From: Candidatus Parabeggiatoa sp. nov. 1
GTDB taxonomy: Bacteria; Pseudomonadota; Gammaproteobacteria; Beggiatoales; Beggiatoaceae
Direction of reading: 5' to 3'
NCBI GenBank assembly: GCA_003646175.1
Contig: QNER01000006.1
Span: 1 to 34,289 of the forward strand
DNA length: 34,289 nt
In this document: positions 238 through 32,524 of the stretch, piece by piece
Layout: every line of letters begins with the position of its first letter
Position numbering within the stretch: the first letter of the stretch is position 1
Notes under the pieces: generated by a model
Database searches by the model: none
Told to the model about the DNA's origin: nothing
The model's input: the letters and a program-made list of their open reading frames with translations, nothing else
Made by a program: the position numbers and the translations under genes

Positions 238-372
238 TTTGAAGCAAGTCCATGAGACGCGACTTTGATAAGGCATGAGAGAACTGAGTAGTGGATAGCC
301 ACGCACCAAAATCTCAAATTCTGAAAATTCTGATTCAGACAAAAGGGTGCGTAAGACGCACCCTACGCTTGC

Positions 373-520
373 TATCGTAAGGAAAACCGACGAGATAGTT
401 TGGTAAGCGTTTTTCGTTTAGGGTAGGATGGGCAGAACTTTCGTTGCATCCATCATTTTTGATCATGTTGAATTATGATGGGGGCAACGAAAAGTATGGG
501 GTTCGCATAGCCCACTTTGA
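373..520. repeat. Imperfect-palindrome repeat family A (GTAGGATRGG..CATCCATCATTTTTG..ATGATGGG), copy 1
   Basis: Shares the 'gataGTTTGGTAAGCGTTTTTCGTTTAGGGTAGGAT' block and a dyad with 6696-6840, 8790-8932 and 9500-9643. Confidence 0.75.
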
Positions 521-6436: not shown

Positions 6437-6695
6437 CTGTTTTACCTATCAATGCTAATTGGTATGTCATTTGGCTTTCCTAAATAGTGCTTGAATCATT
6501 ACGTTGGTATCAAGCTGTTTATTCGTCGGTGTGTCAATGATTAACGAAAGTGCTACGGAACCCAGTTTTACCCGTTCAAATTCTAGCATAAGTCACTCAT
6601 TGGGAGAGGTTTTCGCGTGGTAACCAGAAGTGGAAAACACGGTATCATTATAACAAAACACCAATTTATGGTGTTGATAATTCAATGAATGTGTT

Positions 6696-6840
6696 GGACT
6701 TTCTATCGTAACGCAAACCGATAAGAGAGTTTGGTAAGCGTTTTTCGTTTGGGGTAAAAAGGGTGAATTTTCGTGACATCCATCATCAAAACTATTGTGA
6801 TGGGTTTCGTGTAACGAAGCCCATCCTACGCTTGCTACGA
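6696..6840. repeat. Imperfect-palindrome repeat family A, copy 2
   Basis: GTTGGACTTTCTATCGTAACGCAAACCGATAAGAGAGTTTGGTAAGCGTTTTTCGTTTGGGG.. plus CATCCATCATC..GTGATGGG dyad. Confidence 0.7.
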
Positions 6841-7845: not shown

Positions 7846-8049
7846 CTACGCTTGCTTCGTTTCACAGCGTTTTACACATTCTACGTTGGTTTCTACATCA
7901 ACATTTTTATTGTCATTAAACAATTTTGATTGATGGTTCTTTTGTCGCTGAAGATAGTATGCTACCAATTTTTTCGGTTCATGGTCACATTGCATCGATA
8001 TAATATGCCGAGCTTCCTGTATTCGGTTAAGAACGGGATCATTTTTCAA
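7846..8049 (-). CDS. Small putative partner (antitoxin) of the upstream PIN gene
   Basis: 67 aa, start overlaps the 3' end of the PIN CDS at 8039-8524. C-terminus runs into repeated CACCCTACGCTTGCTT. Confidence 0.5.
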   Translation of the reverse strand: MKNDPVLNRIQEARHIISMQCDHEPKKLVAYYLQRQKNHQSKLFNDNKNVDVETNVECVKRCETKQA

Positions 8050-8524
8050 CTTCTGTTTCTCCTATCAATTCAAGGGGGGTTAATAAAGTGGGTACAAACA
8101 AACCCAGCAGGGTATTTATGCGTCTTATATGGGTAAATTTATTGGCGTTTGCAATATTTTTGCAATTCCAAGTGAGTAGAAAATCACATTTATGGTACGA
8201 TGCCACAGCGAGATGAAGTGCATCTCCCAACGGATCTTTTGGCATTAATTTATGTGCGAGGTAAATTTCGACAATTTCCGAAATGTCTTCTTCAAATGGG
8301 AGAAGCGGTATATTGCTAACCAATTCTAAAGTGTTAGCTTTAGTGGGATAGTCCCCTTTATTCAATTCATCAATGACCGCATCACTGGTAACGAGTTCAT
8401 AATTTTGTCGAGATTCATTCCACCATTGACGTGTCCAATTTCGACGTGCAACGATTTCCGGGGCGGTACGAATCTCATAATAAAAACTAGGAATAGACGT
8501 TTCAATATAGACTTTATATTTCAT
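8039..8524 (-). CDS. PIN-domain protein (type II toxin-like), apparently intact
   Basis: 161 aa MKYKVYIETSIPSFYYEIRTAPEIVARRNWTRQWW..VIDEL..DPLGDALHLAVASYHKCDFLLTWNCKNIANA; typical PIN acidic positions. Confidence 0.8.
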   Translation of the reverse strand: MKYKVYIETSIPSFYYEIRTAPEIVARRNWTRQWWNESRQNYELVTSDAVIDELNKGDYPTKANTLELVSNIPLLPFEEDISEIVEIYLAHKLMPKDPLGDALHLAVASYHKCDFLLTWNCKNIANANKFTHIRRINTLLGLFVPTLLTPLELIGETEVEK

Positions 8525-8789
8525 AAGTTACCTTTCTACCAGTGAATTGAGGTGAGGCTTTATCAAAGCTTCCTTTGTTGGGAGTGTATCAAATATTATC
8601 CGATAATTGTTCAAATTCAAATTTTATGCCTTTGATATTGTCATTTCTGGTTTAGGTATTGTGCCGTTTTTTTTTGGCTCACTTTTAATAATATCGCTAA
8701 CTCGCCTGAAGGAAATCAAAAGCACTGTAGGTTTTCGTTATGAAGGCACGCCAACTTATGGTGATGGTAATTAATTCAATGAATCTGTT

Positions 8790-8932
8790 GGACTTTCTAG
8801 CGTAACGCAAACTGACGAGATAGTTTGGTAAGCGTTTTTAGTTTAGGGTAGGATAGGTAGCACTTTCGTTACATCCATCATTTTTGTTCAGGTTGATATT
8901 ATTATGATGGGTGTAACAAAAATGCTACCCGT
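8790..8932. repeat. Imperfect-palindrome repeat family A, copy 3
   Basis: GTAGGATAGGTAGCACTTTCGTTACATCCATCATTTTTG..TATGATGGGTGTAACAAAAATGCTACCC. Confidence 0.75.
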
Positions 8933-9396: not shown

Positions 9397-9499
9397 GATA
9401 ATTCCTGTTAGTAAAGCTAAGTAAAGCGTGGTTTATTCTTCATGTCTGTTTGGAAAACAAATTTTCTCTTTTTAGAAAATCTAGCACCACGTTGGTCTG

Positions 9500-9643
9500 T
9501 TGGACTTTCTATCGTAACGCAAACCGATAAGAGAGTTTGGTAAGCGTTTTTCGTTTAGGGTAGGATAGGTAGAACTTTCGTTACATCCATCATTTTTGTT
9601 CATGTTGATATTATTATGATGGGCGTAACGAAGTTCTACCCAT
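9500..9643. repeat. Imperfect-palindrome repeat family A, copy 4
   Basis: GTAGGATAGGTAGAACTTTCGTTACATCCATCATTTTTGTTCATGTTGATATTATTATGATGGGCGTAACGAAGTTCTACCC. Confidence 0.75.
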
Positions 9644-9648
9644 GCTTG

Positions 9649-12240
9649 CTAAAAAGCACCGCGTCCCGATAAGACAGCTGGTAGAGTTTTAAGCAATAGT
9701 GCGATATCGTAAGTAAAAGATTGATGTTTTATATATTTTAAATCCATCTCAACTTGTTGTTCAAAAGGAATGAAAGAACGACCAGAGACTTGCCAAATGC
9801 AGGTAATACCAGACGTAACTTTTAAACGCTGACGTTGATAGGGCGTGTACTTAGCCACTTCGTCAGGCAATGGCGGACGTGGGCCTACCAAAGACATGTC
9901 ACCAATCAACACATTCCATAACTGAGGTAGTTCATCAATAGAATATCTGCGAATAAAACGACCTACCCGTGTTATCCGTGGGTCATGTTCCATTTTAAAC
10001 AATACGCTACCTTTCATTCCATTTAGTTTCATTAATGCCACTTTATGTTTTTCTGCATCAATATACATATAACGAAATTTCCACATTTTAAACACTCTAC
10101 CGTTCTTGCCAACACGTATTTGAGAAACAAATATAGGACCTTTGGAATCTAAACGAATCTGTAATGCTATTGTTAATAACAAAGGGGACAAAAAAATAAG
10201 AGCTGTTGCCGACACAACTATATCAAAAATACGTTTAGTGAACTGAAGTTGGTCGGGATTGATATTCTTTTTTAAGTGAGGTATCCATTTTTTTGGATAT
10301 TCAAATAACAATCTATGCAATTCCTTTGGAACTCTAACAGCCAATCTGTTTTCCATAAACGTCAAAAACACATAATCCCGCAAGCTATTTTTTGGAGCCT
10401 GCTTTTTCCATTTAGACGATAACCATTGTCTCAACGCAGAAAATGTACTTTTTTGTGAATCTGCAATTTCTAATTGAAAATCAGATATAGGTTTATCTGA
10501 GGCTTCATCCAATAATGTTTTTAAAGCCGTGCGTATTTTATTTTCTTGAGATAAAGGCAAATCTTTTATCAATTGATCGCGTAACCAATTAGGCATATAC
10601 CCATACCTAAACCAAGGCAAACGCGCAAGTTTAGCCAGGTTGTCGTTAGTCAACAGTTTGTTGCCGTCGGTTGTTTTAAGGTTATAGCCTAAATACAGTG
10701 TTAATTGCCAACGTATTTCTGGATACACGGCACACGCACTAAACCAGTCATAACCGTCTTTTCCCAAAAAATCGCGGACTTGTTTTAGTAATTCGGTGAC
10801 TTTAGCGCGAGCTGGGGCATGGCGTTCTAACCACCAATGGGAGAATTCATTGAAATAGCTGGGAAATGCGGTGAAATCCTTGGTAGAGTGCTTTGGGTTG
10901 AAATTGTCCGGTTGCGCTATTTCCGCTTTAATCTGTTCGGCCAATGTCATTAAGTCATTTTCATTGACGGGTACTGTTCTAATCAGAAAGTCCGCGTTTT
11001 CTAATAACTTTTCTTGATAGCCCCATTGTCCAGGCTGCTCTAACGTGAAAAAGGTTTTTTGTGTCCACACCGAAAATTGCGCAATCCAACGCACAATGTC
11101 GCCAGTTATCGGATCAATAAAACCATTGCCATCCGAAAACATCAGTAACCGATGGGCCGGATAATGATCGGCGAGTTCTGTTAGCAACAACGGTGGCAGA
11201 TCATCGTTTTCCGGATAACAGTGGCGCGGATCACCATCAAAATAATAACGGGCCACAAATACGCCTTCGGCAATGAGTTGATTGACTAACGCATCAATAA
11301 AATGGCTATGATGATCCTTGAAAGTGGTTCTATCTATTAAAACTAAATACTCTGGTATCGTTTTCGCAAAGCCTGTCACCGGCGTAAACCAACCACCGGC
11401 TTTAATCGTGCGTTTAATCGTCGCTTTTAGATCAACACAATCGGTGGCAATGGGCGTGTGTTTACGCAACTGTTGGGCAACCCGCGCCAAACCCACCGAT
11501 TGAAAAAGTCCGGCATTGATATTCTTAGCAAATAACTGTGTTATCTTTGGCGATTTGGATGTGCTTTTCCTAGTTAAATAAGGTTGTGCTTTGTATCGCT
11601 GCCATAAATACCAGAATAACCAACCGCATAGAATTAACCACAAAATTCCCCATACCCACCATTTTTGATAATAAGGTTGGTTTTCTATAGAGTTTCCGTT
11701 ATCTGTCGGTTTTATGTCATCTGATAAATTTAGAGTGGGCTCCGTAGATATTGTTGACGGTGAACCTTCGGAATCGTTTGGCGTTGGCGTTATTTGTTGC
11801 GAGGGTGTTTTTGGGGCATTATCTTTTTTATTGGATTGTTCAACATAAAAAACAGTAGGAAAAACAGAGAGTAACAAAAATATTATCAATGCAAAAATAA
11901 GAAACCCTTTTAAGTTTTTAACCGCCTGTTTTAATGCTTGCCACAGTTTTTGTACAAAAGTGAGTTGCGTTTCCTCAGGTTTTACGCTTTCGACGCGATT
12001 CACCCAATTATCAAAATGCTGGTTAAAATATTCTTGTTCTTGAAGTGAGTGACACAATATAGGCATTAACAGCGTTTTCATTGCGGTTAATTGCGGTGGG
12101 AGTTTATCCTGCGCCGCTAATGCCACGATTAAATCTTGGGCTGCAAAAAATTCTGTCGTGCCAATGTCATAGCCGGCTAGACGCAAGCCTTCTATAAAAA
12201 GCACGAGTTCGCCGTTATCTAAAATGTCGATGGTGTTCAT
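9649..12240 (-). CDS. vWA-like, two-TM conflict-system protein fused to a C-terminal bacterial sugar transferase
   Basis: 863 aa. TM segments GFLIFALIIFLLLSVFPTVF and WWVWGILWLILCGWLFWYLW; vWA-like EYLVLIDRTTFKDHHSHFIDALVNQLIAEGVFVARYYFDGDPR; from about aa 665 FTKRIFDIVVSATALIFLSPLLLTIALQIRLDSKGPIFVSQIRVGKNGRVFKMWKFRYM..IDELPQLWNVLIGDMSLVGPRPPLP..SGITCIWQVSGRS (PF02397-type). Confidence 0.8.
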   Translation of the reverse strand: MNTIDILDNGELVLFIEGLRLAGYDIGTTEFFAAQDLIVALAAQDKLPPQLTAMKTLLMPILCHSLQEQEYFNQHFDNWVNRVESVKPEETQLTFVQKLWQALKQAVKNLKGFLIFALIIFLLLSVFPTVFYVEQSNKKDNAPKTPSQQITPTPNDSEGSPSTISTEPTLNLSDDIKPTDNGNSIENQPYYQKWWVWGILWLILCGWLFWYLWQRYKAQPYLTRKSTSKSPKITQLFAKNINAGLFQSVGLARVAQQLRKHTPIATDCVDLKATIKRTIKAGGWFTPVTGFAKTIPEYLVLIDRTTFKDHHSHFIDALVNQLIAEGVFVARYYFDGDPRHCYPENDDLPPLLLTELADHYPAHRLLMFSDGNGFIDPITGDIVRWIAQFSVWTQKTFFTLEQPGQWGYQEKLLENADFLIRTVPVNENDLMTLAEQIKAEIAQPDNFNPKHSTKDFTAFPSYFNEFSHWWLERHAPARAKVTELLKQVRDFLGKDGYDWFSACAVYPEIRWQLTLYLGYNLKTTDGNKLLTNDNLAKLARLPWFRYGYMPNWLRDQLIKDLPLSQENKIRTALKTLLDEASDKPISDFQLEIADSQKSTFSALRQWLSSKWKKQAPKNSLRDYVFLTFMENRLAVRVPKELHRLLFEYPKKWIPHLKKNINPDQLQFTKRIFDIVVSATALIFLSPLLLTIALQIRLDSKGPIFVSQIRVGKNGRVFKMWKFRYMYIDAEKHKVALMKLNGMKGSVLFKMEHDPRITRVGRFIRRYSIDELPQLWNVLIGDMSLVGPRPPLPDEVAKYTPYQRQRLKVTSGITCIWQVSGRSFIPFEQQVEMDLKYIKHQSFTYDIALLLKTLPAVLSGRGAF

Positions 12241-12565
12241 GTGCCAATATTATTTTCTTTTATAAGGAGTGACGCTGGTGATGGTCATTTATTGAATTTG
12301 TTGGATTTCCTTTCGTCATTCGTTGTGGTGGGTTTCGCGAAAGCTTTACCCACCCGACAATTTACCCATCCTACGCTCGCTTTCCAAAGGAAAACCTACG
12401 GGCTGGGGTGTTAAATATAGCATGATTTTGCCAATTACTCTTCACCCTATTTTTGTTCTGCTCTATATTTTTTCTTTAATAATCAAGTACTTAATATATA
12501 CTTGATAAATTCATGGTGAAAAATGATTGGTCATTTCTTGATTGATTTAACACCCTACCTACGGG

Positions 12566-12787
12566 CTAACCTTTTGCTTTCCAATTCATAATTTGGTTAT
12601 GGATGTCTTCTATACCGGTATTTCCCCAATAGTCTGCTATTTCTTGTACGGTATCACCTTTGCCTCGTTCAATTAACACGATAAATTGCGTGGCTTTTTT
12701 AATACCTAATTGTCCCACTAATAAATTCCATCCTTCACGAATAATGGCAACGCTATCAGTCGTCGGTATAGCAACGGTTAAGTTCAT
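12566..12787 (-). CDS. PIN-partner small ORF, copy 3 (full length)
   Basis: 73 aa; ATG overlaps the stop of the PIN reading frame (GAA TTT GAA TGA / ATG AAC). Confidence 0.6.
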   Translation of the reverse strand: MNLTVAIPTTDSVAIIREGWNLLVGQLGIKKATQFIVLIERGKGDTVQEIADYWGNTGIEDIHNQIMNWKAKG

Positions 12788-13294
12788 TCAAATTCTCCTT
12801 GTTTCATTTTTTCAACGAAACGTATTGGATTCATGACAGAAAAATAGGTTTGATGATATGATTTAGCTAAACGACGGTAGCACTTAGTTTGTTTAATTTG
12901 TGTTACCTTTTTGTCACAAGAAATAAAATAGCGAGCTTTACCGATAATCGCTGAAGCAACATGTAAAGCATCACGCGCTTTTATTTTCTACTTTAGTTTC
13001 TACTTGTTGCCCTAATTTTAACGTTTCATCAGAGCTGTCAACATGATAAGATGATAAAGCCAAATAGTTTTCGACTTTAGCCTGTTTTTCTTTTTCAAGG
13101 ATATTATACACTTCAAACATAACAATATCTGAACCAAGCAGGCTCAAGCGTTTCATTTTGATAGCCTGAATAATTTCAAGACACGCATTGGCTTCTGTTT
13201 CGATATTAGGTTGTGTTTGGTCATCGAAAAGACGCGAATACATGTTGGTATCAAAATAAACTAAAATGGCATTGATATTAGATAAATCTTGCAC
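12785..13294 (-). pseudogene. PIN-domain protein, copy 3, frameshifted near 12990
   Basis: ORF 12971-13294 MQDLSNINAILVYFDTNMYSRLFDD..LKLGQQVETKVENKSA*; the other frame continues KARDALHVASAIIGKARYFISCDKKVTQIKQTKCYRRLAKSYHQTYFSVMNPIRFVEKMKQGEFE*. Confidence 0.75.
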
Positions 13295-13659
13295 TTTGAT
13301 ATTTCCTAAATGTTATTAGCATCATGACTGTTTGGGAAAAACCATGATATATAGCACTCGTTAAGGCCTGATAAAAAGTATCATTTATTACACACTTAAA
13401 GCATGAGAGTCAACAAAAGCGCAAATTTGAGTTTGATGCCTTTGATATTGCCGAAGGTATTGTGCCGTTTTGTTTAGCTCACCCTTGATAATGTCGCTGA
13501 CTCGTTGGTAAAAATCAAAAGCATGGTAGTTTTTTGTTATGAAGGAACGCCAATTTATGGTGATGGCAATCCAATGGATTGGTTGGATTTCCGAACAAAT
13601 TATGCATTCCAACGCGCCAACGTTGGAACGCGAAATTTCTTCGAGACAAAGTTTCTGAT

Positions 13660-14697
13660 TTATACTTTATCGATACTGAGTAATCCTGTATTTGTCAAAG
13701 AGTCTGCGACAATCACTTGATCCAACCAGTTATCTAATTGTTCAATATCATCGGTGGATTCTATTTTCTTTATCACGTTATCGGGTATGGTTGAAAATTT
13801 GCGTTGTAATTGACGAATCAATATGCGGTGTTGAGTGTGCAATGTTCCCCAATCTTTACCCGCTTGCTGTCCATGCCATGCGCTTTCAGCCAAGGCCTCT
13901 CGGATTACGCCAATTCTCCACATTTGTTCTGGCAATTCTCTGAAATACCGATCGATATAAGGTATTGTGTCTTCATGTATTTTCGGTTTCATTTGTTTCA
14001 CCTCCAAAATTTTTTCCCATATCACTTTGGGATCTGTGGCAAATCCAACGTCTATTACCAATTGAAGATAGTTTGTCAAGCCTTCACGGAGACATAATGA
14101 AATAAACTGTGACAATTTTTCACCCCGCGCTAATGGTAACAGGGGATAGTTACCCTCAACCAATGCCAGTTCTGAAGGACAAATAATCCATTGTGAAAAT
14201 CCTTCTTCACAGTTGTAAATGCCATCCTCAATCTTAACCAATCTCACGTCTGGTTTCATTTTATTAAGAATTTTAATGGGTTTCGTGACACAAACAATTG
14301 TGAGTGTTCTCAGGCTTGGATATCGGTTGAGTTTGCTATCGTCAACGTCATCATTAGTCTCTTCATCAAGGGTGTCAGTGTCTGTATCTTCATTCTCTTC
14401 ATTTTCAGATTTTAAAGCACCCAGTCCCCATGATCGCATCATAATTAGATTATAGTCTAACAGGGTTAATGGATCATGGATGCCTTTCAATTCAAGGGCA
14501 TTAAGCCTACGAAAATGGGAAAAAACAGTGTTTTGTAATTGCGCTTTGTCGGAATCAGTACATGTGACTACTAAATCAATACTTCGCCCCCGAAAAAATA
14601 CCTCTCGTTCGGTTTCTACAGCAATGCCTTTATTTTCAAAGAATTGTCTATAAAAGGCTTTAGTGGTATCGTCAAACGGTTCGTGTGAAGAAGTCAT
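13660..14697 (-). CDS. Conserved hypothetical, possible PD-(D/E)XK nuclease-like fold
   Basis: Start moved to MTSSHEPFDDTTKAFYRQFFENKG because upstream codons run into a repeat. FFRGRSIDLVV..LNALELKGIHDP resembles a D..ExK nuclease core. Confidence 0.55.
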   Translation of the reverse strand: MTSSHEPFDDTTKAFYRQFFENKGIAVETEREVFFRGRSIDLVVTCTDSDKAQLQNTVFSHFRRLNALELKGIHDPLTLLDYNLIMMRSWGLGALKSENEENEDTDTDTLDEETNDDVDDSKLNRYPSLRTLTIVCVTKPIKILNKMKPDVRLVKIEDGIYNCEEGFSQWIICPSELALVEGNYPLLPLARGEKLSQFISLCLREGLTNYLQLVIDVGFATDPKVIWEKILEVKQMKPKIHEDTIPYIDRYFRELPEQMWRIGVIREALAESAWHGQQAGKDWGTLHTQHRILIRQLQRKFSTIPDNVIKKIESTDDIEQLDNWLDQVIVADSLTNTGLLSIDKV

Positions 14698-14766
14698 ATC
14701 AGTTACCCATTTTATTTTCAATTCAATTCTAAGGAGTGATGCTAGCGCGTTGAAACGATAAATAGT

Positions 14767-15060
14767 TGAGTACAACGAATTTTGTTCCTAAACGAATATT
14801 GATTAAATCCTTTTCTGGTGTTTGTAAAAAAGGCTATTTTTCAACACAGAGAACACAGAGTACCACAGAGTACCACAGAGTATAAGTCTAGGATTTTTAT
14901 ATATTATTATACAAAACACTGTGTAACGTTGTGTTTTTTTTGCCATCGAATTTGAAAACTGATAGGTGATAAGCCTTTCTTATATACAATCCCTGTAGTT
15001 CCAGTTTTTTTTGATAGCGGGAAAACCGAATTCGTTTAGGAACAAAATTCGCTGTACTCA
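14767..15060. mobile_element. ~294-bp element bounded by near-perfect 31-bp inverted repeats
   Basis: TGAGTACAACGAATTTTGTTCCTAAACGAAT (14767) versus ATTCGTTTAGGAACAAAATTCGCTGTACTCA (15030), one mismatch. Interior carries CACAGAG repeats. Confidence 0.8.
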
Positions 15061-15063
15061 TAT

Positions 15064-16068
15064 TTAACCTTTATTTTTAAGCCAGTCTTCAAAAATGTCT
15101 TTGGCAAGTTCTTGATCATCGGTATTGGTGACTAACGTACTTAATGTCCGTGCTAAATCATCAGGATAGCGATATTCGGTATTGCGCCCTTTAAACATTT
15201 GATGCAATGTCTTTAACCAATTTAATAATTTGGCGGTGGCTGGTTTTTCTTTTAATTGATTTCGCAATTCAAAGAATAAATCCAACGCATCGTTTAGCAA
15301 TTCACTGCTATGTTTGGCAATTTGCCCCAACCGTTTTTCCACAATTTGAGATAATATTTCCCGCGTTGGAAAAGGAATATTGTAGTAAACGCAACGGCGC
15401 AAAAAGGCCGCAGGTAAATGCTTTTCTGAGTTGCTGGTGAGTATCAATATCGGTTTAAACCGTTCATCCGCCACGCTAATTTCATCATCAATGTCCAATT
15501 CAGGCACATGAAAATAGTTATGTTCCACTTCATTCAGAATATCGTTAGGAAAATCGCGGGGGGCTTTGTCGATTTCATCAATCAATACCACAGAACGTTG
15601 TGCTTTGCCCGGATGTTTAAAACCGGTGGGCAAAAAAGGCTTAACCTTTTCTTCATCATTCGCCAGTATAATCGCTTTACCTAACGCAGTATATTTCAAA
15701 TAATCTTTAGCGTTTGGCGTATCTTGGTTGCGCGCTTGTGCCACTTGTACCGCGTGAAAATGCCGCAGCGCATCGTAAATATAAAACAAATCTTGTGCTT
15801 TATGATCGGATTTGGTTTCAAATTTAAGCACCGGTAAACCAAATTGCCATGCGACATGATGGGCGAGAGGTGTTTTACCTGTTCCCGGCTCCCCGGTTAA
15901 TAATAGCGGTTGCCCTAATAATAAAGCGACATTAACCGCATCCACTAACCCATCATCAGGCCTATAAGTTTCTGGACGTATTTCGCTAATTGGGCGCGAT
16001 GACGGTAATTCAACCGGATTGCTAGGGGGTGGCTCTGGCAGTGTTTTTTGGTAAAATGGGAAATCCAT
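15064..16068 (-). CDS. MoxR-family AAA+ ATPase
   Basis: 334 aa. Walker A GEPGTGKT, Walker B VVLIDEIDKAP, sensor ILILTSNSEKHLPAAFLRRC. Confidence 0.9.
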   Translation of the reverse strand: MDFPFYQKTLPEPPPSNPVELPSSRPISEIRPETYRPDDGLVDAVNVALLLGQPLLLTGEPGTGKTPLAHHVAWQFGLPVLKFETKSDHKAQDLFYIYDALRHFHAVQVAQARNQDTPNAKDYLKYTALGKAIILANDEEKVKPFLPTGFKHPGKAQRSVVLIDEIDKAPRDFPNDILNEVEHNYFHVPELDIDDEISVADERFKPILILTSNSEKHLPAAFLRRCVYYNIPFPTREILSQIVEKRLGQIAKHSSELLNDALDLFFELRNQLKEKPATAKLLNWLKTLHQMFKGRNTEYRYPDDLARTLSTLVTNTDDQELAKDIFEDWLKNKG

Positions 16069-16081
16069 GTTTGATAAACCT

Positions 16082-16375
16082 TTATTGGTTTTGGTTGAAT
16101 ATTTTTTCTAATTCAGAAGCCAATTCATTCATTGGAATAGCGTCTCTATTTTCGTAAAGCGCATCAATTTTAAGTTCTAAAGCATAAGAAAATTTTTTTT
16201 CTAACAGATCTTTGTATTGATCGATCCAACGATAAACTGCTCCTTTGTTGATACTATTAAGTTTTTGTAATACTTCAGCGTGGATTCCTTTTTTTTCAAA
16301 AAATTCGGTATTTAAAGTTTCAAATTGATTCAATAGCATTGAGCTGGTTGCTGTCCTACTATTTTTCCAGCGCAA
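16082..16375 (-). CDS. In-frame continuation of the caspase/iSTAND-like protein after TGA
   Basis: Same frame, zero gap: ..FSFVKK-TGA-LRWKNSRTATSSMLLNQFETLNTEFFEKKGIHAEVLQKLNSINKGAVYRWIDQYKDLLEKK... Confidence 0.6.
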   Translation of the reverse strand: MRWKNSRTATSSMLLNQFETLNTEFFEKKGIHAEVLQKLNSINKGAVYRWIDQYKDLLEKKFSYALELKIDALYENRDAIPMNELASELEKIFNQNQ

Positions 16376-17719
16376 TCATTTTTTAACGAATGAAAATTTT
16401 TCATCTTTATAATTAAAGGAGAGAAAAACGAGAAAAGGATGACGTTGAGCAATCATTTTTGGCCAATCTGCCCAAAATTCAATAAAACCATCAATAATCG
16501 TTTTTTTATCTTGCCAATCTGCTAAATCTTCAGTGAAGATACGAATAGAAAAAATAATAGGTTGCTGTTCTCTAGCAAGTTTATTGGCAATAGCCTCCTT
16601 TTTAGCAGCCGTATTTGTTTCACTTTCTAAAAACCATAATATATCTTGGTGCAATTTTTCAACGGTCTGAAATTCATCAACTCGAATTTCTCGGTTAAAT
16701 ATTCCGGCCCCAAAATATTTAGAAAGAACATTATCTGTTGGTAAGAAACCTTCTAGTAAACATCTTACAAATTCACCATATTCACTGTTATCACCATATA
16801 TAAAACAAAGTAAAGGATGTTGCCATTGTCCTTGATAATTTTGTATTGTTGTTCTTAGCTGGTGTTTTTGTCGTTCACGATTAGGTAACAAGAACAGCAG
16901 AGGCTCAAGCTGTGTTTCTGATGATTTATCCTTATCATTTTGTGACATTAGCCCGGTTTTACCGACACCACTTGTCCCTGGTGTTAATGAAATATTTTGA
17001 TAAGCTGGGTTTTTACAAATTCCCAATTTATCAGGCGAACCATGAGCACTTGACTGAGGTTCAGGTAAATCCTTATCAGTCAACTGCTTATTTAAATGAT
17101 TGATAATATCTTGAAGCGTTAAAATTTCTCCGGCATTTTTAATGCCTTGTTTCAAAATAACCAATAGTTCATGGGTAAAAGCCGTATAATACGCATTTTC
17201 TGGCGATTCATCCTTAGCCGCTTGGTTAGAAGGGGCTGCAGTCATAAAAAAAACGTTTTTGCCTCGACTATCTACGCCCTCTTTTGCCATCGCACTAAAA
17301 CAACAATCTATGATAAAAATGAGGTTTTTTACTCTGGCTTTTTTTATCACTAAATCGACTAGACGCTTTGAAGGCATTGCACCAGTATATTCAGGTTCTT
17401 CGGGCCGCGTTTTTTTAGTCGCTAAATAGAAATTTTGTGAACGATAAATACCATGCCCAGCATAATAAACAATTATCGTATCCAAAACATTAGGAATAAT
17501 ACCAATGATTTCTGAAGTGATTTCAGTGACATTATCCCTATCTAGCATCATACAAATCTGGTTTTTATCAATACCAACCATTTCAATGAGCAAGCGGCGA
17601 AACTCGACAAGGTTACTTTTTACATTAGGTAAATTTTGGAAACCTTCATTTGCAAAGTCAAATTCACTGGCTCCAATCAAAATGGCTTGGGTATTGTTTG
17701 GATCAATCAGCGTCATCAT
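16376..17719 (-). CDS. Caspase-like (C14) peptidase with C-terminal iSTAND-like region; ends at an in-frame TGA
   Basis: YYAGHG and IIDCCFSAMAK give the His/Cys dyad. C-terminal LFLLPNRERQKHQLRTTIQNY..PLLCFIYGDNSEYGEFVRCLLEGFLP resembles the iSTAND region of EACC1-linked conflict proteins. Confidence 0.85.
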   Translation of the reverse strand: MMTLIDPNNTQAILIGASEFDFANEGFQNLPNVKSNLVEFRRLLIEMVGIDKNQICMMLDRDNVTEITSEIIGIIPNVLDTIIVYYAGHGIYRSQNFYLATKKTRPEEPEYTGAMPSKRLVDLVIKKARVKNLIFIIDCCFSAMAKEGVDSRGKNVFFMTAAPSNQAAKDESPENAYYTAFTHELLVILKQGIKNAGEILTLQDIINHLNKQLTDKDLPEPQSSAHGSPDKLGICKNPAYQNISLTPGTSGVGKTGLMSQNDKDKSSETQLEPLLFLLPNRERQKHQLRTTIQNYQGQWQHPLLCFIYGDNSEYGEFVRCLLEGFLPTDNVLSKYFGAGIFNREIRVDEFQTVEKLHQDILWFLESETNTAAKKEAIANKLAREQQPIIFSIRIFTEDLADWQDKKTIIDGFIEFWADWPKMIAQRHPFLVFLSFNYKDEKFSFVKK

Positions 17720-18075
17720 TTATTCCTACGTGATTTGCCTTTGATTTCAGCAAGCAATGCTTGAATTTTAGCCTCGTTTTCTGGTAAAACATCAGCCGGA
17801 TTTTTCAACGTGGGCTGTATCACAACCTCGTTATGTTTTCGCCAACTGGCAATATTAATCGCAATATCTGCTAATGCAACAACCGTTGAAACAATAGCAA
17901 TGAGAGTCGAGGGATCAACCAACCCGCCCATATCGCCTTTGGTGTGGGGGAGTTCTTTTCTCACCACCGTTAAGCCGTCAATATTTGCCCGCTCTAACCA
18001 ACCCATCAAATCCGATAATGTGTCTTCATTGGCATCTTGCCCTTCTAGGCGCAATTCTAATTCTAAACTCATAAA
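17716..18075 (-). CDS. EACC1-like effector-associated component
   Basis: Likely start MSLELELRLEGQDANEDTLSDLMGWLERANIDGLTVVRKELPHTKGDMGGLVDPSTLIAIVSTVVALADIAINIASWRKHNEVVIQ; stop overlaps the caspase ATG (ATGA). Confidence 0.75.
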   Translation of the reverse strand, partial: FMSLELELRLEGQDANEDTLSDLMGWLERANIDGLTVVRKELPHTKGDMGGLVDPSTLIAIVSTVVALADIAINIASWRKHNEVVIQPTLKNPADVLPENEAKIQALLAEIKGKSRRNK

Positions 18076-18233
18076 AACCTCTGGCAAAATGTATAAAAAA
18101 TATAAATAGTTTGAAATTGAGACAATAGCCAAATCAATAGGCTGTGTAAACTACTGCGTATATGTAGGTGCGTTTAAATTCTTTAATACTTATAATATTT
18201 TTAGGGTTCAAGATCAAGAAAACCAAATTTATA

Positions 18234-18921: not shown

Positions 18922-19527
18922 TTAAGTTATTGCCTTTTCGCATTCTGAAAACAGCAGATTTAAAACCCCCAATAACTCTTCTATATGTTGAATGCCAACA
19001 GCAATCGGATGCCGAATAAACACGTTTTTTTCTAATTTGCCAAATTGCCAAGTATCGCCCGTCGTGACAATAGACAAAATTGGAATATCAACAGAGTTAT
19101 TCATTTTTTGGCAAACAACCGATTGCAATAAGGCTTGCGTCCAACCTTCATCAAAGTTCTCATTTTTGACTTCCACCGTCAAAAGCAAAGGTTTATAAAC
19201 TTTTTTATACCCTGTCGGTGTTTTGGCAGTGATTAAATAATCAGGAATGACAATCACATCATCCGCTTTAATTTGAACATGGCTAAATAGATTTAATCGC
19301 GAATGCTTTTTCCATACTTCTTTTAAAAACGGCACCACAATAAATTCGGTAGAAAATGCTTCTTTGTCATCTTCCCCCCGGTTTTTGAGAGAAAAAGCCA
19401 GTTCTTCTTTAAACCAATCCATGACACTAACGGGTTGAATTTTATCAAAATCAATAAATTCAACCATTTGATACTTCAGATGGTAATGGTCTAAAATTAC
19501 CATAATATTGTCAAGTTTATTAGTCAT
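18922..19527 (-). CDS. Conserved hypothetical with PD-(D/E)XK-like core
   Basis: Start taken at MTNKLDNIMVILDHYHLKY because the longer N-terminus is repeat sequence. VIPDYLITAK..PLLLTVEVKNENFDEGWTQALLQ resembles D..ExK. Confidence 0.6.
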   Translation of the reverse strand: MTNKLDNIMVILDHYHLKYQMVEFIDFDKIQPVSVMDWFKEELAFSLKNRGEDDKEAFSTEFIVVPFLKEVWKKHSRLNLFSHVQIKADDVIVIPDYLITAKTPTGYKKVYKPLLLTVEVKNENFDEGWTQALLQSVVCQKMNNSVDIPILSIVTTGDTWQFGKLEKNVFIRHPIAVGIQHIEELLGVLNLLFSECEKAIT

Positions 19528-20100
19528 CACTTCTTTCCTAACATTTCTATAGTATTCCAGTTCAATCCGTCCAAACTTTAGTTTGGTAAGCCCAAGATAA
19601 ATCTTGAACTCCAATTCAAGATAAATCTTGGACTCCAATTAAAAATTGCGCAAGTTTGTCATAAATATAATTATAATTAATGGCGGCATCTAAAATACTT
19701 TGCTGTTTGGCCTCGCCTTGGATATCCGTCCTTGCCATCTCTGGTTGTATAGTTGCCCATAAATGTTTGTGCCAAACCGTAAAGCGTTGCCAAACGCTTT
19801 ACGGTTTTTTCATAAGGCGGATAACATCGCGGCATGATTTTCACAAATCGCCTATGTCATTATTCTAACGCGCCAAACTAAAGTTTGGACTCCACTAGTG
19901 CCGGATCGTGGTGGATGGTACTCGCCTCATAATCCTTTCTTGATTCATTGGTAAAATCACGGATGGGTAAAGAAACGGTGGTATTTTGATAAACCACCGG
20001 GATTATCCAGTCTGCTAGGGCGGTTTTTGTACTTTAGGCGCGTTCCCAATTCCCAATTTCCAAGTACAATGTATTTAACTTCAATCACCACGCGGCCCTC

Positions 20101-26413: not shown

Positions 26414-29398
26414 TTATCGTATTTCAAAAGGCTGACAATCCAAAGCCAGCCAGTTTTCCTGTTGCCACGGATCGGCGTTTTCGGCCGTCACCACACCGCA
26501 GCCTTGATACATCCCCGGTTTGAGGCCTACTGGCAAAATCAAGTCTAAAATCGAAAAGGTTTGTTGCCCGGTTAAATCAAGCTGAGTTCGGTAGACTTGG
26601 ATAGTGTCAGGCAAACTAAAATTCAGCGGGTAATGGATAGTGATAAAGTAGCCTTGCGGAAACACAATGGCGGCATATAAATCATAGAAGTTGCCATTGG
26701 GTTCGCCATTGGTTTCGAGCGTAAATCTCAGTTGTTCGCCAATACGATAGGCGGATTGGTTGAGTGTCGCGTCTATGGTCACCATTTGTTCGACACCGCC
26801 GGCTTGCACTTCACCAAATGCGTTTTCTGACCATTCGCCGTTGGGGTTTTGGGCTTGATATATCACTTTCCAAGTGCCGCTTTCCCGAAAATTGGGATAA
26901 CGCAATTCATAGCGTTCCTGATATTGGTTATAACCCATGTCCACTTCTTCCCGATTAAATTGCGTCGCTTCGCCTTGATACGCAGCCAGTTGTAAGCTGG
27001 GGGGGACCATAATCGCGCGCACTTTTTGCAACGCACCCGCGCCACTGGGTGAGGTTTTAATCCATACCGTTTCGCTGGCTTGTCCCTTTGGCACCACTAG
27101 GGGGTTATGGACTTCTGTGATATACGGCGGGAGTTCGGGTGCGCTCTCGCCTGGTTTGCCAATGTAAATCCCGGCAACCCGTTTACCATCGGCACTGGTA
27201 TTGGCATAACCATCACCATCGTCATCCAATTGGGGCCGCTGGCTCCCGAATAATTTGGGATCGTCTTGCATCAAATGTTCAGTCGCTATAAACGCATCAT
27301 ACAGTGTGACTTCGTGCCGCAATTCGGAAATCAAGGTTTCCGAAAAATTGGCATATCTGACATTCCAAGCGGTATCGTCGGCATTCGCGCTGGTGAGGAC
27401 GCTGCGTTGTGGTACGCCGCTTAAATCGTCAATAAACGATCCGGCATAACAGCTATCCAAAATAATGATTTGTTCAACCCCGGCTGGGATTTGGGCTAAC
27501 AAGCCTTGCAAGTCTTGGGCCGATAGTTCAACGTCGCGTGTGAGTTTGAGATAATCTGGGCGGGCATGGCTATGCACATAAAAAATAAATTGTTGCCCAG
27601 CCACTAAGTCGGCCGTGGCACTTTGAAAGGCCGTCGCAAGTTCATTGACGGGGTCAAATAGTTGAAAATCAACCACATTATCTTCCGCACCATCGCCATT
27701 GATGTCTTGCCAGTCCACCGGATTCATATAAAAAATATCGGCATCGGTAAATCCCCGCTCAGAGAGCATAAAGTACATGCGCCGAGATAAGTCGTTGCTA
27801 TATTTAAATAGCGTGTTTTGCTTCTGCGCGCCACCGCCGGCAATGATAATGGCTTTGCCAACGTTTTCTGGCGTAACGCTTTCTGGCGTTACCCTAATTT
27901 CGTGTTGGGCAGTGGCAGTCAGTCCTTGATTATCAGTGACTGTCAGGATAATCGTGTACTCGCCGGCCGTAAAAGCATTGGTCAGTGGCTCACTCGTGCC
28001 TACCTTAGCAAACAGATTATTATTAATTGTCCATTCATAACTGACAATCTCACCATCCGCATCTTCAGAACCGCTGGCATCCAGTGTTACTAATAGCGGT
28101 GCTGCGCCTTGGCTGGGTAAGGCCGTGAACTGTGCCACCGGCGGTGCCATGACAGTCACCGTTTGCGTGACCACATTCTTATTTCCCAAACCAGTGTTAT
28201 CAGCAACAGCAAAGTTAATGGTATAAGTCCCTGGATGTGTGAAGGTCATTGTGGCGATAGGGGTCTCACTTGACACCGGTTGGTCGGCCGCAATCCACCA
28301 ACTATAATCGGTAATGGTATTATCTTCAGGTGAGTGGGAATCGCTACCATCTAAGGTGACTGTCAGCGGTACCATACCTTGGGTAGGTGAAGCACTGAAC
28401 TGAGCAATCGGACTGCCATCACTTACATAGACGGTTTGTTGCGTAGTATTCGTATTACCCCAGCTGTCCATGACAATTAACTCGACTGGATATTCATCAC
28501 TGATAGTAAAGGTATAAGACGCATTTTGGCCCGACAAATGTTGTCCATTGACGATCCAATGATAATCCGCAATCGGCCCATCCGGATCTGTCGAACCACT
28601 GCCATCAAAGGTCACTGGCAACGGCGGTTTGCCCGAAGACGGTGAGAGGGTAAAAACCGCAGTGGGGGGCTGGTCGGTGACAGAGACAATTTTCTCGACA
28701 GACGCGGTGAAACCCTCACTATCAGTGACGGTGAGCACCACTGGATATTCCCCGGCTACTGCAAATGTAATACCCATTACCATGCCATGCAGTGTTTGAC
28801 CATTGGCTGACCAACTGTAATCCACAATATGACCGTTTGAATCGCTTGACGCACTGGCATCCAGCCTAACAGTCAATGGCGGTAAACCCGATTCGGGGGA
28901 CAGGGTAAAATCGGCGAGAGGCGCAAAAAAGGATGGCTGAGTGACCGTAAACAATGTCTGACCGGCAATGGTAAAAGTTCCCTTACGTTCGTCATTGGTA
29001 TTATTGGCGGCCACCGAATATTCAATAGTGCCATTGCCAGTGCCACTATTGCCGGCGGTGAGAGTCAACCAATCAGCGCTACTACTGACAGTCCAAGGGG
29101 GGCAGTCGGCGGGCGTTACACTGACATTCATACTACCACTTTCTGTATTGAAATTGGCAACTTGGCTGTTTGGCGTAATGCTGTAGTTGCAATCAAGATA
29201 CGTTCTCCACAATTTCAAAGTGCTATCATTACTGCCAGAGAGCGCGTAGTGACCATCCGACGAGAAGGCCACTGACCGAACCCAATGGCTATGCCCTGTA
29301 AAAGTGCGGATTTCAGTTCCGCTGGCAACATCCCACAGTTTCAACGTCCAATCCGAACTGCCAGAAAGTGCGTAGCGACCATCCGGCGAGAAGGCCAC
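26414..29398 (-). CDS. WD40-BACON-PKD(x5)-caspase-like protein, distal part
   Basis: BACON-like CPPWTVSSSADWLTLTAG..GTFTIAGQTLFTVTQ; repeated PKD units (PPLTVRLDASASSDSNG..YSW); peptidase signature FIFYVHSHARPDYLKL..IIILDSCYAGSFID. Confidence 0.85.
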   Translation of the reverse strand: MAFSPDGRYALSGSSDWTLKLWDVASGTEIRTFTGHSHWVRSVAFSSDGHYALSGSNDSTLKLWRTYLDCNYSITPNSQVANFNTESGSMNVSVTPADCPPWTVSSSADWLTLTAGNSGTGNGTIEYSVAANNTNDERKGTFTIAGQTLFTVTQPSFFAPLADFTLSPESGLPPLTVRLDASASSDSNGHIVDYSWSANGQTLHGMVMGITFAVAGEYPVVLTVTDSEGFTASVEKIVSVTDQPPTAVFTLSPSSGKPPLPVTFDGSGSTDPDGPIADYHWIVNGQHLSGQNASYTFTISDEYPVELIVMDSWGNTNTTQQTVYVSDGSPIAQFSASPTQGMVPLTVTLDGSDSHSPEDNTITDYSWWIAADQPVSSETPIATMTFTHPGTYTINFAVADNTGLGNKNVVTQTVTVMAPPVAQFTALPSQGAAPLLVTLDASGSEDADGEIVSYEWTINNNLFAKVGTSEPLTNAFTAGEYTIILTVTDNQGLTATAQHEIRVTPESVTPENVGKAIIIAGGGAQKQNTLFKYSNDLSRRMYFMLSERGFTDADIFYMNPVDWQDINGDGAEDNVVDFQLFDPVNELATAFQSATADLVAGQQFIFYVHSHARPDYLKLTRDVELSAQDLQGLLAQIPAGVEQIIILDSCYAGSFIDDLSGVPQRSVLTSANADDTAWNVRYANFSETLISELRHEVTLYDAFIATEHLMQDDPKLFGSQRPQLDDDGDGYANTSADGKRVAGIYIGKPGESAPELPPYITEVHNPLVVPKGQASETVWIKTSPSGAGALQKVRAIMVPPSLQLAAYQGEATQFNREEVDMGYNQYQERYELRYPNFRESGTWKVIYQAQNPNGEWSENAFGEVQAGGVEQMVTIDATLNQSAYRIGEQLRFTLETNGEPNGNFYDLYAAIVFPQGYFITIHYPLNFSLPDTIQVYRTQLDLTGQQTFSILDLILPVGLKPGMYQGCGVVTAENADPWQQENWLALDCQPFEIR

Positions 29399-29437
29399 TG
29401 AATTTACACTATCGTTATGCCCTGTGAAGGTGCGAAT

Positions 29438-30157
29438 TTATGCCCCGCTGGCAACATCCCACAGTTTTATTTCCTGATAACTGCCCGATAGCGCGTAGCG
29501 ACCATCCGGCGAGAAGGCGGCTGACAAAACACCATACCTACCATGCCCAGAGAAGGTGCGAATTTCAGCCCCACTGGCAACCTCCCATAATTTCAAAATC
29601 CCGTCACCATAGCTAGAAAGTGCGTAGCGACCATCCGGCGAGAAACCCACTGACGAAAAACCACTGCGCCCATAAAAGGTACGAATTTGGGCCCCATTGT
29701 CCACCGACCACAATTTCATCGTCCTATCAACACTGCCAGAGAGCACGTAGCGACCATCCGGCGAAAAGGCGGGGTTATGCCCAGCGAAGGTGCGTATTTC
29801 TGCCCACCCAGAAATATCTAATAGTTTCAATTTATTTGAACTGCCAGAAAGTGCGTAGCGACCATCCGGCGAAAAGGCCACTGACGCAACACGGTTATGC
29901 CCAAATAAAGTATGGATTACTGCCCCGCTGGCAACATTCCACAATTTCAAAGTCTTATCATCACTGCCAGAAAGCGCGTAGCGACCATCCGGCGAGAAGG
30001 CCACTGAAGAAACACCATTGCTATGCCCTGTGAAGGTGCGGACGGGTTCTGTAATGGTATCGGCCGTAGCAGCCGCGCTATAGCCGAGCAATAGGGCCAG
30101 TAATAATAGGCTTGGCGATAGGTGTTTACCTAGGTTTTTCAATAAGTTATATGACAT
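29438..30157 (-). CDS. Signal peptide plus WD40 repeats; proximal part of the same protein
   Basis: Signal SLLLLALLLGYSAAATADT, then GHxxxVxSVAFSPDGRYALSGSxDxTxKLW repeats. Ends SGA-TAA, in frame with IRTFTGHNDSVNSVAFSPDG of the next ORF. Confidence 0.85.
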   Translation of the reverse strand: MSYNLLKNLGKHLSPSLLLLALLLGYSAAATADTITEPVRTFTGHSNGVSSVAFSPDGRYALSGSDDKTLKLWNVASGAVIHTLFGHNRVASVAFSPDGRYALSGSSNKLKLLDISGWAEIRTFAGHNPAFSPDGRYVLSGSVDRTMKLWSVDNGAQIRTFYGRSGFSSVGFSPDGRYALSSYGDGILKLWEVASGAEIRTFSGHGRYGVLSAAFSPDGRYALSGSYQEIKLWDVASGA

Positions 30158-30398
30158 GTGCGTTTCTCCTGTTAGGATTTAGGGTAGTTCTGACAAATTT
30201 TAGCACATAATAAATCCCTTATAAAATACAATCCTTGTAGTTATTATACTGGAAGTACAGCTTCTTTCCGGATTTAACGGATTTTTTTCACCCTTTTCAA
30301 AGGAACGAAGTATATCCCTTATAAAATACAATTATTGTAGTTATTGTTCTCATCAACCATCCTTTTTTATCCTTATAAAAATAGTTCAAAGGGCAAAG

Positions 30399-32042
30399 TC
30401 AGCGGGTGTTGCGCTGACACTCACTTTGCTTGGTATAAGACGCTTTTTGCCCCGACAAATATTGTCCATTAACGAGCCAATGATAATCCGCAATCGCCCT
30501 CTTACCCGAAGACGGTGATAGAGTAAAAACCGTAGTGGGGGGCAAGTCGATGACAGAAACTATTTTCTCGACAGACGCGGTGAAACCCTCACTATCAGTA
30601 ACAGTCAGCATGATTGGATATTCCCCAGCGGCTTCAAGCGTAATACCAATTATCATGCCCGGTAGCGTTTGACACTTGGCTAAACGACTTGACCAAGTGT
30701 AATTCACAATATCACCGTTTGGATCGCTTGACGCACTGGCATCCAGCCTAACAGTCAATGGCGGAAAACCCGACTCAGGGAAGAAGCTAAAATCAGCGAT
30801 AGGTACGGGAGAAGGTTGAGTGAGCGTAAACGTTTGACCGGCAATGGTTAAAGTCCCCGCGCGCTCGTCGGGGGTATGATTGGCGGCCACCGAATATTCA
30901 ACAGTGCCATTGCCGATGCCGCTATTGCCGGTAGTGATAGTCAACCAATCAGCGTCACTACTGACAGTCCAAGGGCAGTCGGCCGGTGTTGCGCTAACAC
31001 TCACATTGCCACTTTCGGTAAAATTGGCTATTTGGCTGTTTGGCGTAATGCGGTAGGTGCAATCAAGATAGATTCCCCACAGTTTCAAAGTCTTATCATC
31101 ACTGCCAGAGAGCGCGTAGTGACCATCCGGCGAAAAGGCCACTGACCGAACATAATCGCTATGCCCTGTGAAAGTGCGGATTTCTGTGTCCACTAACCAC
31201 AGTTTCATAGTCCTATCAGCACTGCCAGAAAGCGCGTAGCGACCATCCGGCGATACGGCCACTGAATTTACAGTATTGCTATGCCCAGAGAAGGTGCTTA
31301 TTTCGGCTCCGCTGGCAACCGCCCACACTTTCAGATCATAACTGCCAGAGAGTGCGTAGTTGCCGTCGGAGGTGAAAGCAACTGATTGAACCCAACCGGT
31401 ACGCCCAGAGAAGGTGCGGATTTCGGCCCCGCTGGCAACCCCCCACAGTTTCAAAGTCTTATCATAACTGCCAGAGAGCGCGTAGTTGCCGTCGGGGGAG
31501 AATGCCACTGACAAAACACCACTGTTATGCCCATAAAAAGTGCGTATTTCTGAACCGCTGGAAACCTCCCACAGTTTCAAAGTATTATCCCAACTACCAG
31601 AGAGTGCGTAGTTGCCGTCGGGGGAGAATGCCACTGACAGAACATAATGGCGGCTATGCCCTGTGAAGGTGCGGATTTCGGCCCCGCTGGCAACCTCCCA
31701 CAGTTTCAAAGTCCCATCCCAACTGCCAGAGAGCGCGTAGTTGCCGTCGGGGGAGAAGGCCACTGACAAAACACCACTGCTATGCCCTGTGAAAGTACGG
31801 ATTTCTGCTCCGCTGTCCACTGCCCACAGTTTCAAAGTCTTATCCCGACTGCCAGAGAGCGCGTAGCGACCATCCGGCGAGAAGGCCACTGAAGAAACAC
31901 CACTGCTATGCCCTGTGAAGGTGCGGACGGGTTCTGTAATGGTATCGGCCGTAGCAGCCGCGCTATAGCCGAGCAATAGGGCCAGTAATAATAGGCTTGG
32001 TGAGAAAAGCTTAGCTAGGTTTTTCAATAAGTTATCTGACAT
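30399..32042 (-). CDS. Paralogous secreted WD40-BACON-PKD protein, truncated (no peptidase domain)
   Basis: Near-identical signal peptide and WD40 units; diverges after VNGQYLSGQKASYT into KQSECQRNTR*, an out-of-frame BACON-like fragment. Confidence 0.85.
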   Translation of the reverse strand: MSDNLLKNLAKLFSPSLLLLALLLGYSAAATADTITEPVRTFTGHSSGVSSVAFSPDGRYALSGSRDKTLKLWAVDSGAEIRTFTGHSSGVLSVAFSPDGNYALSGSWDGTLKLWEVASGAEIRTFTGHSRHYVLSVAFSPDGNYALSGSWDNTLKLWEVSSGSEIRTFYGHNSGVLSVAFSPDGNYALSGSYDKTLKLWGVASGAEIRTFSGRTGWVQSVAFTSDGNYALSGSYDLKVWAVASGAEISTFSGHSNTVNSVAVSPDGRYALSGSADRTMKLWLVDTEIRTFTGHSDYVRSVAFSPDGHYALSGSDDKTLKLWGIYLDCTYRITPNSQIANFTESGNVSVSATPADCPWTVSSDADWLTITTGNSGIGNGTVEYSVAANHTPDERAGTLTIAGQTFTLTQPSPVPIADFSFFPESGFPPLTVRLDASASSDPNGDIVNYTWSSRLAKCQTLPGMIIGITLEAAGEYPIMLTVTDSEGFTASVEKIVSVIDLPPTTVFTLSPSSGKRAIADYHWLVNGQYLSGQKASYTKQSECQRNTR

Positions 32043-32266: not shown

Positions 32267-32524
32267 TTATTCGTTTAGGAACAAAATTAGTTGTACTGTT
32301 ATGGATGACTCGAATTGCGAGGGCGAGAGTCTAATACAATGAAGAGAATAGGACAACAACTACAAGGATTGTATTTTAGAAAGGATTTATAAGAAAGGAT
32401 TTCTACATGCATATCCGCCCGACTCATGATACTGGAAGTACAACTTCTTTCCGGATTTAACGGATTTTTTTCACCCTCTTCAAAGGAACGAAGTATATCC
32501 ATTATATTTATAGTTAATTACCAA

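What the first reader, a model, noticed from the sequence alone, without database searches (positions are those of the whole stretch)
9649..18075. Conflict operon with a vWA-like membrane component fused to an undecaprenyl-phosphate sugar transferase
Seen: EACC1-like gene (ATGA overlap) then caspase/iSTAND-like gene, a 13-bp gap, MoxR ATPase, nuclease-like gene, then a vWA-like two-TM protein whose last ~200 aa are a full sugar transferase domain in one uninterrupted frame. Established: EACC1, caspase, iSTAND and MoxR-vWA components occur in predicted bacterial conflict systems. Inference: the fusion may point the system at the cell envelope (lipid carrier or exopolysaccharide), or the sugar transferase may be an accidental fusion.
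Basis: partly seen in the sequence, partly recalled or inferred. Interest (0 to 1): 0.8.

Follow-up and report, generated by a model that had tools for sequence, protein, structure and literature searches.

The report
Defence-type operon ending in sugar-transferase effector
A filamentous sulfur bacterium (a Candidatus Parabeggiatoa relative) carries a known type of predicted bacterial immune or cell-death operon whose swappable "weapon" slot holds, in this one case among about 110 compared, the enzyme domain that loads sugars onto the lipid carrier used to build the cell envelope.

Summary
The 863-aa ORF (9649-12240, -) is one open frame: an N-terminal helical domain, two TM helices, a vWA domain and helical linker, then a complete monotopic phosphoglycosyl-transferase (monoPGT, Bac_transf) domain. 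The vWA call is supported by a predicted fold whose only significant PDB match is NorD, the vWA partner of the MoxR ATPase NorQ. The operon is an iSTAND-type MoxR-vWA ternary system (Kaur et al. 2020), with an EACC1 gene and a caspase-iSTAND fusion upstream. In 75 loci from other genomes the iSTAND-MoxR-vWA order is standard and the vWA C-terminus is a swappable effector slot. At the same locus in two congeneric species, the vWA core is about 80% identical in DNA and stops matching at the same boundary, where other domains follow. The sugar transferase is therefore a module in that slot, not an arbitrary accident. It was the only one among about 109 distinct vWA frames. Catalytic residues are intact, but two motif positions are unusual. 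Corrections: the iSTAND gene carries an in-frame TGA, leaving its last 98 codons as a separate frame, and the nuclease-like gene is a multicopy insertion, not core. Function is inferred; nothing has been tested experimentally.

The parts
17716..18075 (-). EACC1 gene: small protein with one TM segment (ATG start at 18075; ORF opens at 18132)
   Evidence: PF19953 28.1 bits, cut-off 23.6; hydrophobic segment in the 138-aa ORF aa 68-97; stop TGA overlaps next ATG
16376..17719 (-). caspase-iSTAND gene (447 aa), ended by an in-frame TGA at 16378-16376
   Evidence: Peptidase_C14 aa 12-223 E=5e-11; iSTAND aa 277-433 E=2.5e-9, both above cut-off; NCBIfam caspase_w_EACC1 136.7 bits, cut-off 140; YYAGHG at 85 and IDCCFS at 137
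16082..16375 (-). 98-codon frame after the TGA: remainder of the iSTAND C-terminus
   Evidence: same frame as the caspase-iSTAND gene; 43-46% identical to the C-terminal ~95 aa of iSTAND proteins in relatives, where there is no stop
15064..16068 (-). MoxR-type AAA+ ATPase, 334 aa
   Evidence: AAA_5/AAA; Walker A GEPGTGKT at 59, Walker B VVLIDEIDKA at 160; 75-87% identical to MoxR of closest homologous loci
13660..14775 (-). nuclease-like gene (PD-(D/E)xK-like by motif; weak DUF4351): insertion between MoxR and vWA, not a core part
   Evidence: DUF4351 below cut-off; four other matching places in the genome; no match at this position in relatives
10291..12240 (-). vWA component core, aa 1-650: N-terminal helical domain, 2 TM, vWA domain (~230-440), helical linker (~445-645)
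   Evidence: AF2 model mean pLDDT 77; Foldseek NorD 9qhf_G E=5.6e-4; 68-73% identical to the closest congeneric and family homologues
9649..10290 (-). effector slot: linker (aa 651-668) and complete monoPGT / Bac_transf domain (aa 669-857)
   Evidence: PF02397; aligns to WbaP (30us, 8t53) and PglC (8g1n) over the whole domain, with the catalytic DE

Best explanation
An iSTAND-type MoxR-vWA ternary conflict system, with an EACC1/caspase front end, whose effector slot holds a monoPGT. Shown: the gene set and order, the vWA fold (by model), the conserved core, effector swapping at a fixed boundary at the same locus in congeners, and an intact monoPGT active-site set (K721, R764, D769-E770, R788, D673-x12-P686, D833). 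Inferred: the two TM helices hold the vWA protein at the inner membrane with the PGT on the cytoplasmic face. EACC1 and the caspase-iSTAND protein sense an invader or membrane stress. MoxR ATPase action on the vWA protein (with or without caspase cleavage) releases or assembles the PGT. [quoted passage not shown] Because the operon encodes no later glycan-building enzymes, the likeliest outcome is diversion of the scarce lipid carrier, slowing wall and envelope synthesis in the attacked cell (about 0.3). Induced surface-glycan synthesis with enzymes encoded elsewhere is the second reading (about 0.25). The confidence given is for the system assignment and the effector-slot reading, not for either outcome.
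For: Domain hits; NorD fold match; iSTAND upstream of MoxR upstream of vWA in 57 of 75 loci, MoxR in 68, several of the rest being cut by contig ends; variable C-termini; DNA match to congeners ends at window 10286 (L044) and 10313 (L046), while flanking genes match again (7902-8535 at 86%; 18936-19546 at 94%); EACC1-caspase/iSTAND-MoxR-vWA repeated in Halobeggiatoa HSG11 with an FGE-sulfatase effector; PGT residues. Published model: PMC7159879.
Against: No experiment on any iSTAND ternary system was found. The PGT fusion is a singleton. The TGA removes a conserved C-terminal part of iSTAND, so the system may be decaying. KFRSM is KFRYM (Y724), and PGIT is SGIT (S810); a Tyr or a Ser at these places was not seen in the other 31 PGTs compared, which could mean relaxed constraint. 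An 'effector' could instead be a localisation or sensing domain.
Confidence: 0.75

Rival explanations
1. Regulated glycan initiation rather than conflict: the MoxR-vWA-iSTAND switch controls the first step of an exopolysaccharide or sheath pathway in a filament-forming bacterium, much as the response regulator EpsW activates EpsZ.
For: The PGT is closest to stand-alone family PGTs, 72% identity to one in a congener; no other intact copy of this PGT type was found in the (80% complete) genome, only a decayed fragment. Post-translational control of a monoPGT by a partner protein has precedent (PMC12802240).
Against: No glycan-assembly genes recognised in the operon or window; homologous operons carry unrelated effectors; a caspase and EACC1 are not expected for a housekeeping pathway.
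Confidence: 0.15
2. Decaying system: the fusion is real but no longer functional, as the TGA in iSTAND, the insertion between MoxR and vWA and the unusual PGT residues suggest.
For: In-frame TGA where relatives have Trp; a nuclease-like gene and a PIN fragment between MoxR and vWA; unusual motif residues; the linker-sharing copy in a congener is clearly degraded.
Against: The 863-aa frame, the MoxR motifs, the caspase His/Cys motifs and the PGT catalytic set are all intact; the vWA core remains 71-75% identical to congeners.
Confidence: 0.25
3. Assembly chimera or sequencing error joining a vWA gene to a stand-alone PGT gene.
For: Fragmented assembly (1343 contigs); no read data; the PGT half is not independently joined to a vWA in any other genome.
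Against: The join lies at the boundary where relatives also change effector. Paralogues of the vWA core in this genome are below 60% identical, too different for an assembler to confuse. A congener shares the linker DNA to within about 10 codons of the PGT, where its contig ends.
Confidence: 0.06

Closest known systems
iSTAND-type MoxR-vWA ternary systems (Kaur et al. 2020, PMC7159879)
   Same: iSTAND protein with N-terminal caspase, MoxR, vWA protein with a helical N-terminal domain and TM helices, variable C-terminal effector, membrane-proximal subset.
   Different: Effector is a monoPGT, not named in the main text; an EACC1 gene precedes the caspase-iSTAND gene; in-frame TGA in iSTAND.
EACC1 two-gene membrane system (System 4 of Kaur et al. 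2020)
   Same: 5' EACC1 gene with TM helix, then a gene with N-terminal caspase carrying a further C-terminal domain.
   Different: The C-terminal domain is iSTAND and the pair is joined to MoxR-vWA; a merger of the two systems, also seen in Halobeggiatoa HSG11.
Monotopic phosphoglycosyl transferases (PglC, WbaP, EpsZ)
   Same: Complete catalytic domain with re-entrant helix, DX12P and Asp-Glu dyad.
   Different: Instead of no partner (small type) or the 4-TM bundle plus DUF of the large type, the N-terminal partner is a two-TM vWA protein; it fits the loose 'bifunctional' class only by having a fused domain.
NorQD / CoxDE MoxR-vWA chaperone pairs
   Same: MoxR ATPase next to a vWA partner; predicted fold matches NorD.
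   Different: NorD has no TM helices or swappable effector (own knowledge).

Membership tests
iSTAND MoxR-vWA ternary system | iSTAND domain in the third component | tested here: met
   PF19995 38.2 bits, cut-off 24; but the gene is cut by a TGA 14 aa after the domain match
iSTAND MoxR-vWA ternary system | MoxR AAA+ gene next to the iSTAND gene | tested here: met
iSTAND MoxR-vWA ternary system | vWA component with helical N-terminal domain, optional TM, variable C-terminal effector | tested here: met
iSTAND MoxR-vWA ternary system | conflict (anti-invader) function | not testable with these tools
   predicted only, also in the source paper
EACC1 system | 5' EACC1 with a TM helix, then a caspase-containing gene | tested here: met
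VMAP ternary system | VMAP protein as third component | tested here: not met
   no VMAP Pfam hit in the operon proteins; iSTAND present instead
monoPGT | re-entrant helix DX12P, Asp-Glu dyad and substrate-orienting K/R/R | tested here: met
   D673/P686, D769-E770, K721, R764, R788, D833
monoPGT | sugar-phosphate transfer to polyprenyl phosphate | not testable with these tools
   needs a biochemical assay
Large monoPGT (WbaP type) | 4-TM bundle and cytoplasmic DUF before the catalytic domain | tested here: not met
   two TM helices and vWA instead

The most novel reading that the evidence does not exclude
A conflict system that acts by capturing the cell's undecaprenyl phosphate: a MoxR/vWA/caspase-gated monoPGT converts the shared lipid carrier to a dead-end lipid-linked sugar and so stops wall synthesis in the infected cell of a filament.
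Probability: 0.22. Interest if true: 0.75.

Novelty: new variant of a known kind. Interest (0 to 1): 0.45.

Why it matters
It adds an envelope-lipid enzyme to the effectors placed behind MoxR-vWA switches. It also gives a natural series at one chromosomal locus in congeneric bacteria, in which the switch core is kept while both ends (sensing front and effector tail) are exchanged. That makes the idea that the vWA C-terminus is a plug-in effector slot directly testable.

Tried and rejected
Search for other vWA-PGT fusions in genome-contig loci, the family (43 genomes), the class (369), the phylum (399) and viral contigs: none. The class and phylum scans scored few candidates per genome, so they are not exhaustive. 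PADLOC: no direct system match. Phage records: no vWA relatives. TGA recoding was considered and rejected: EACC1 in the same operon ends with TGA. Azospirillum protein annotated 'O-antigen polymerase' in the vWA slot: no Pfam hit, so not used as a parallel. The full-length AF2 model is poor at aa 675-757 (shallow alignment), so no claim is made about how the PGT packs against the vWA part. Alloyangia hits are to a gene annotated as WecB-type glycosyltransferase in a glycan cluster, not to a vWA protein with this operon. Pfam iSTAND misses several clear iSTAND proteins in relatives; relatives were recognised by an iterated profile instead.

Full report
What is there. On the minus strand, in order of transcription: EACC1 (18075-17716), caspase-iSTAND (17719-16376), a 98-codon continuation (16375-16082), MoxR (16068-15064), a nuclease-like gene (14775-13660), a truncated PIN-like ORF (13294-12971) and the 863-aa gene (12240-9649). 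Pfam supports EACC1, caspase, iSTAND, AAA+ and Bac_transf above curated cut-offs. NCBIfam's 'caspase, EACC1-associated type' scores 136.7 against a cut-off of 140.

The genome. The window is one contig of an 8.8-Mb, 1343-contig assembly, 80% complete.

The vWA component. No vWA Pfam model matches aa 225-440. An AlphaFold2 model of aa 1-650, from 40 homologues, has mean pLDDT 77, with the N-terminal helical domain, vWA and helical linker largely above 80. The only PDB match below E=1e-3 is NorD in the NorQD complex (9qhf_G, 5.6e-4, probability 1.00; 9qhe_G follows at 1.1e-3). NorD is the vWA partner of a MoxR ATPase, so the fold, the partner gene and the literature agree. The metal-site motif looks degenerate (LIDRTTF at 301-307), and its Asp-Arg part is kept in most relatives. 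Hydropathy gives TM helices at about 105-131 and 194-213 with a low-confidence loop between them.

The core is conserved and the tail is not. Seventy-five loci from named genomes (Beggiatoaceae, Cyanobacteria, Saprospiraceae, Chloroflexota and others) encode relatives. iSTAND lies upstream of MoxR upstream of vWA in 57 of them, and MoxR is present in 68; several of the others are cut by contig ends. The C-terminal regions are unrelated to each other: FGE-sulfatase in 15 of 72 and WD40 in 14, and in the family also caspase, LRR, LysM, bactofilin, TIG/DUF11/vWA, ABC-2-like and other multi-TM tails, with trypsin-like and CHASE2-like tails by inspection only. This matches the description of iSTAND ternary systems in PMC7159879, including TM helices in 28% and caspase fused to iSTAND. 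Related loci also change the front end: bDLD3 in Marithrix, a PNP_UDP domain in Halobeggiatoa, trypsin in this genome's own paralogue, no caspase in sp. nov. 3.

A natural swap at one locus. DNA comparison: against HSG14 (L044) the match runs 10286-12278 at 80% and resumes at 7902-8535 (86%, the downstream PIN gene). Against sp. nov. 3 (L046) it runs 10313-12240 (81%), 15071-16095 (87%, MoxR), 16070-16822 (67%, iSTAND) and 18936-19546 (94%, the upstream gene). The match thus stops at the vWA/effector boundary and at the caspase/iSTAND boundary, while outer flanks remain, each flank being seen in one of the two congeners. In sp. nov. 2 a degraded copy (L063) matches to 10268, in the linker, and its contig ends there. 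A search for the linker motif found it only in the window and in that contig.

The sugar transferase. The domain aligns end to end with WbaP and PglC. Residues named as catalytic or structural in PMC12802240 are present: DX12P (D673, P686), K721, R764, D769-E770, R788, D833 (correspondence by alignment and motif). It falls among stand-alone PGTs of the same bacterial family, nearest 72% identity to one in G001, without firm placement. Two positions stand out: KFRSM/KFRTM is KFRYM, and the Pro of PGIT is Ser; where the motif could be read, no other of the 31 PGTs has Tyr or Ser there, although the Pro is Gln or Val in two. In this assembly the only other trace of this PGT type is a decayed fragment on C370.

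Defects. The iSTAND frame is stopped by TGA at 16378-16376, at a position where relatives read Trp. The 98 codons that follow are 43-46% identical to the end of relatives' iSTAND proteins. Whether this is a real nonsense change or a sequence error cannot be settled here. The nuclease-like gene has four other matching places in the genome and is absent at this position in relatives. A 31-bp inverted repeat (14767-14797 / 15030-15060) lies beside it.

Mechanism and confidence. The system assignment and the effector-slot reading are well supported (0.75). Conflict function is a published prediction, not a tested fact; no experimental paper on these systems was found (open-licence library only). 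Topology is consistent: with two TM helices the region after the second is cytoplasmic if the N-terminal domain is, which is where a monoPGT works. Sequestration of undecaprenyl phosphate is known to damage cells (cited in PMC10942596), which is why lipid-carrier capture is preferred over glycan synthesis when no later pathway genes are in the operon. Both outcomes remain inference.

Novelty. New variant of a known kind: known system class, effector not named in the main text of the defining paper. That paper does mention three glycosyltransferase families among VMAP-system effectors, and its supplementary lists could not be read, so prior listing is not excluded.

Noticed in passing
window 368-491, 6692-6786, 8784-8930, 9496-9648: A ~140-nt repeat, 84-93% alike, occurs four times on this contig (the last copy lies right after the sugar-transferase stop codon) and otherwise only as short fragments in the genome. 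It contains a hairpin-forming stretch; function unknown.
   Followed up: partly
window 14767-15060; 32268-32297: 31-bp near-perfect inverted repeat with a 232-bp interior between MoxR and the nuclease-like gene, resembling a small non-coding mobile element; one arm is also found near 32.3 kb.
   Followed up: partly
window 26414-32042: Neighbouring WD40-repeat ORFs (547 and 239 aa) followed by a 994-aa ORF with WD40, BACON and PKD domains and a Peptidase C13 match, possibly one broken gene.
   Followed up: no
L053 / L078 (Halobeggiatoa HSG11): Same EACC1 - caspase/iSTAND - MoxR - vWA arrangement with an intact iSTAND end and an FGE-sulfatase effector: the cleanest comparison operon for the window.
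   Followed up: yes
L045 / L071 (Candidatus Marithrix): Death-like domain bDLD3 fused to the iSTAND protein beside MoxR, and a vWA protein carrying caspase domains at its C-terminus.
   Followed up: no
L149, L030: Family PGTs fused to a WecG/TagA/CpsF glycosyltransferase (about 696 aa): apparently two glycan-synthesis steps in one polypeptide.
   Followed up: no
L066 (Azospirillum lipoferum 4B plasmid): A trypco2 - serine protease - MoxR - vWA operon on a conjugative plasmid, whose vWA protein is annotated 'O-antigen polymerase' with no Pfam support.
   Followed up: partly
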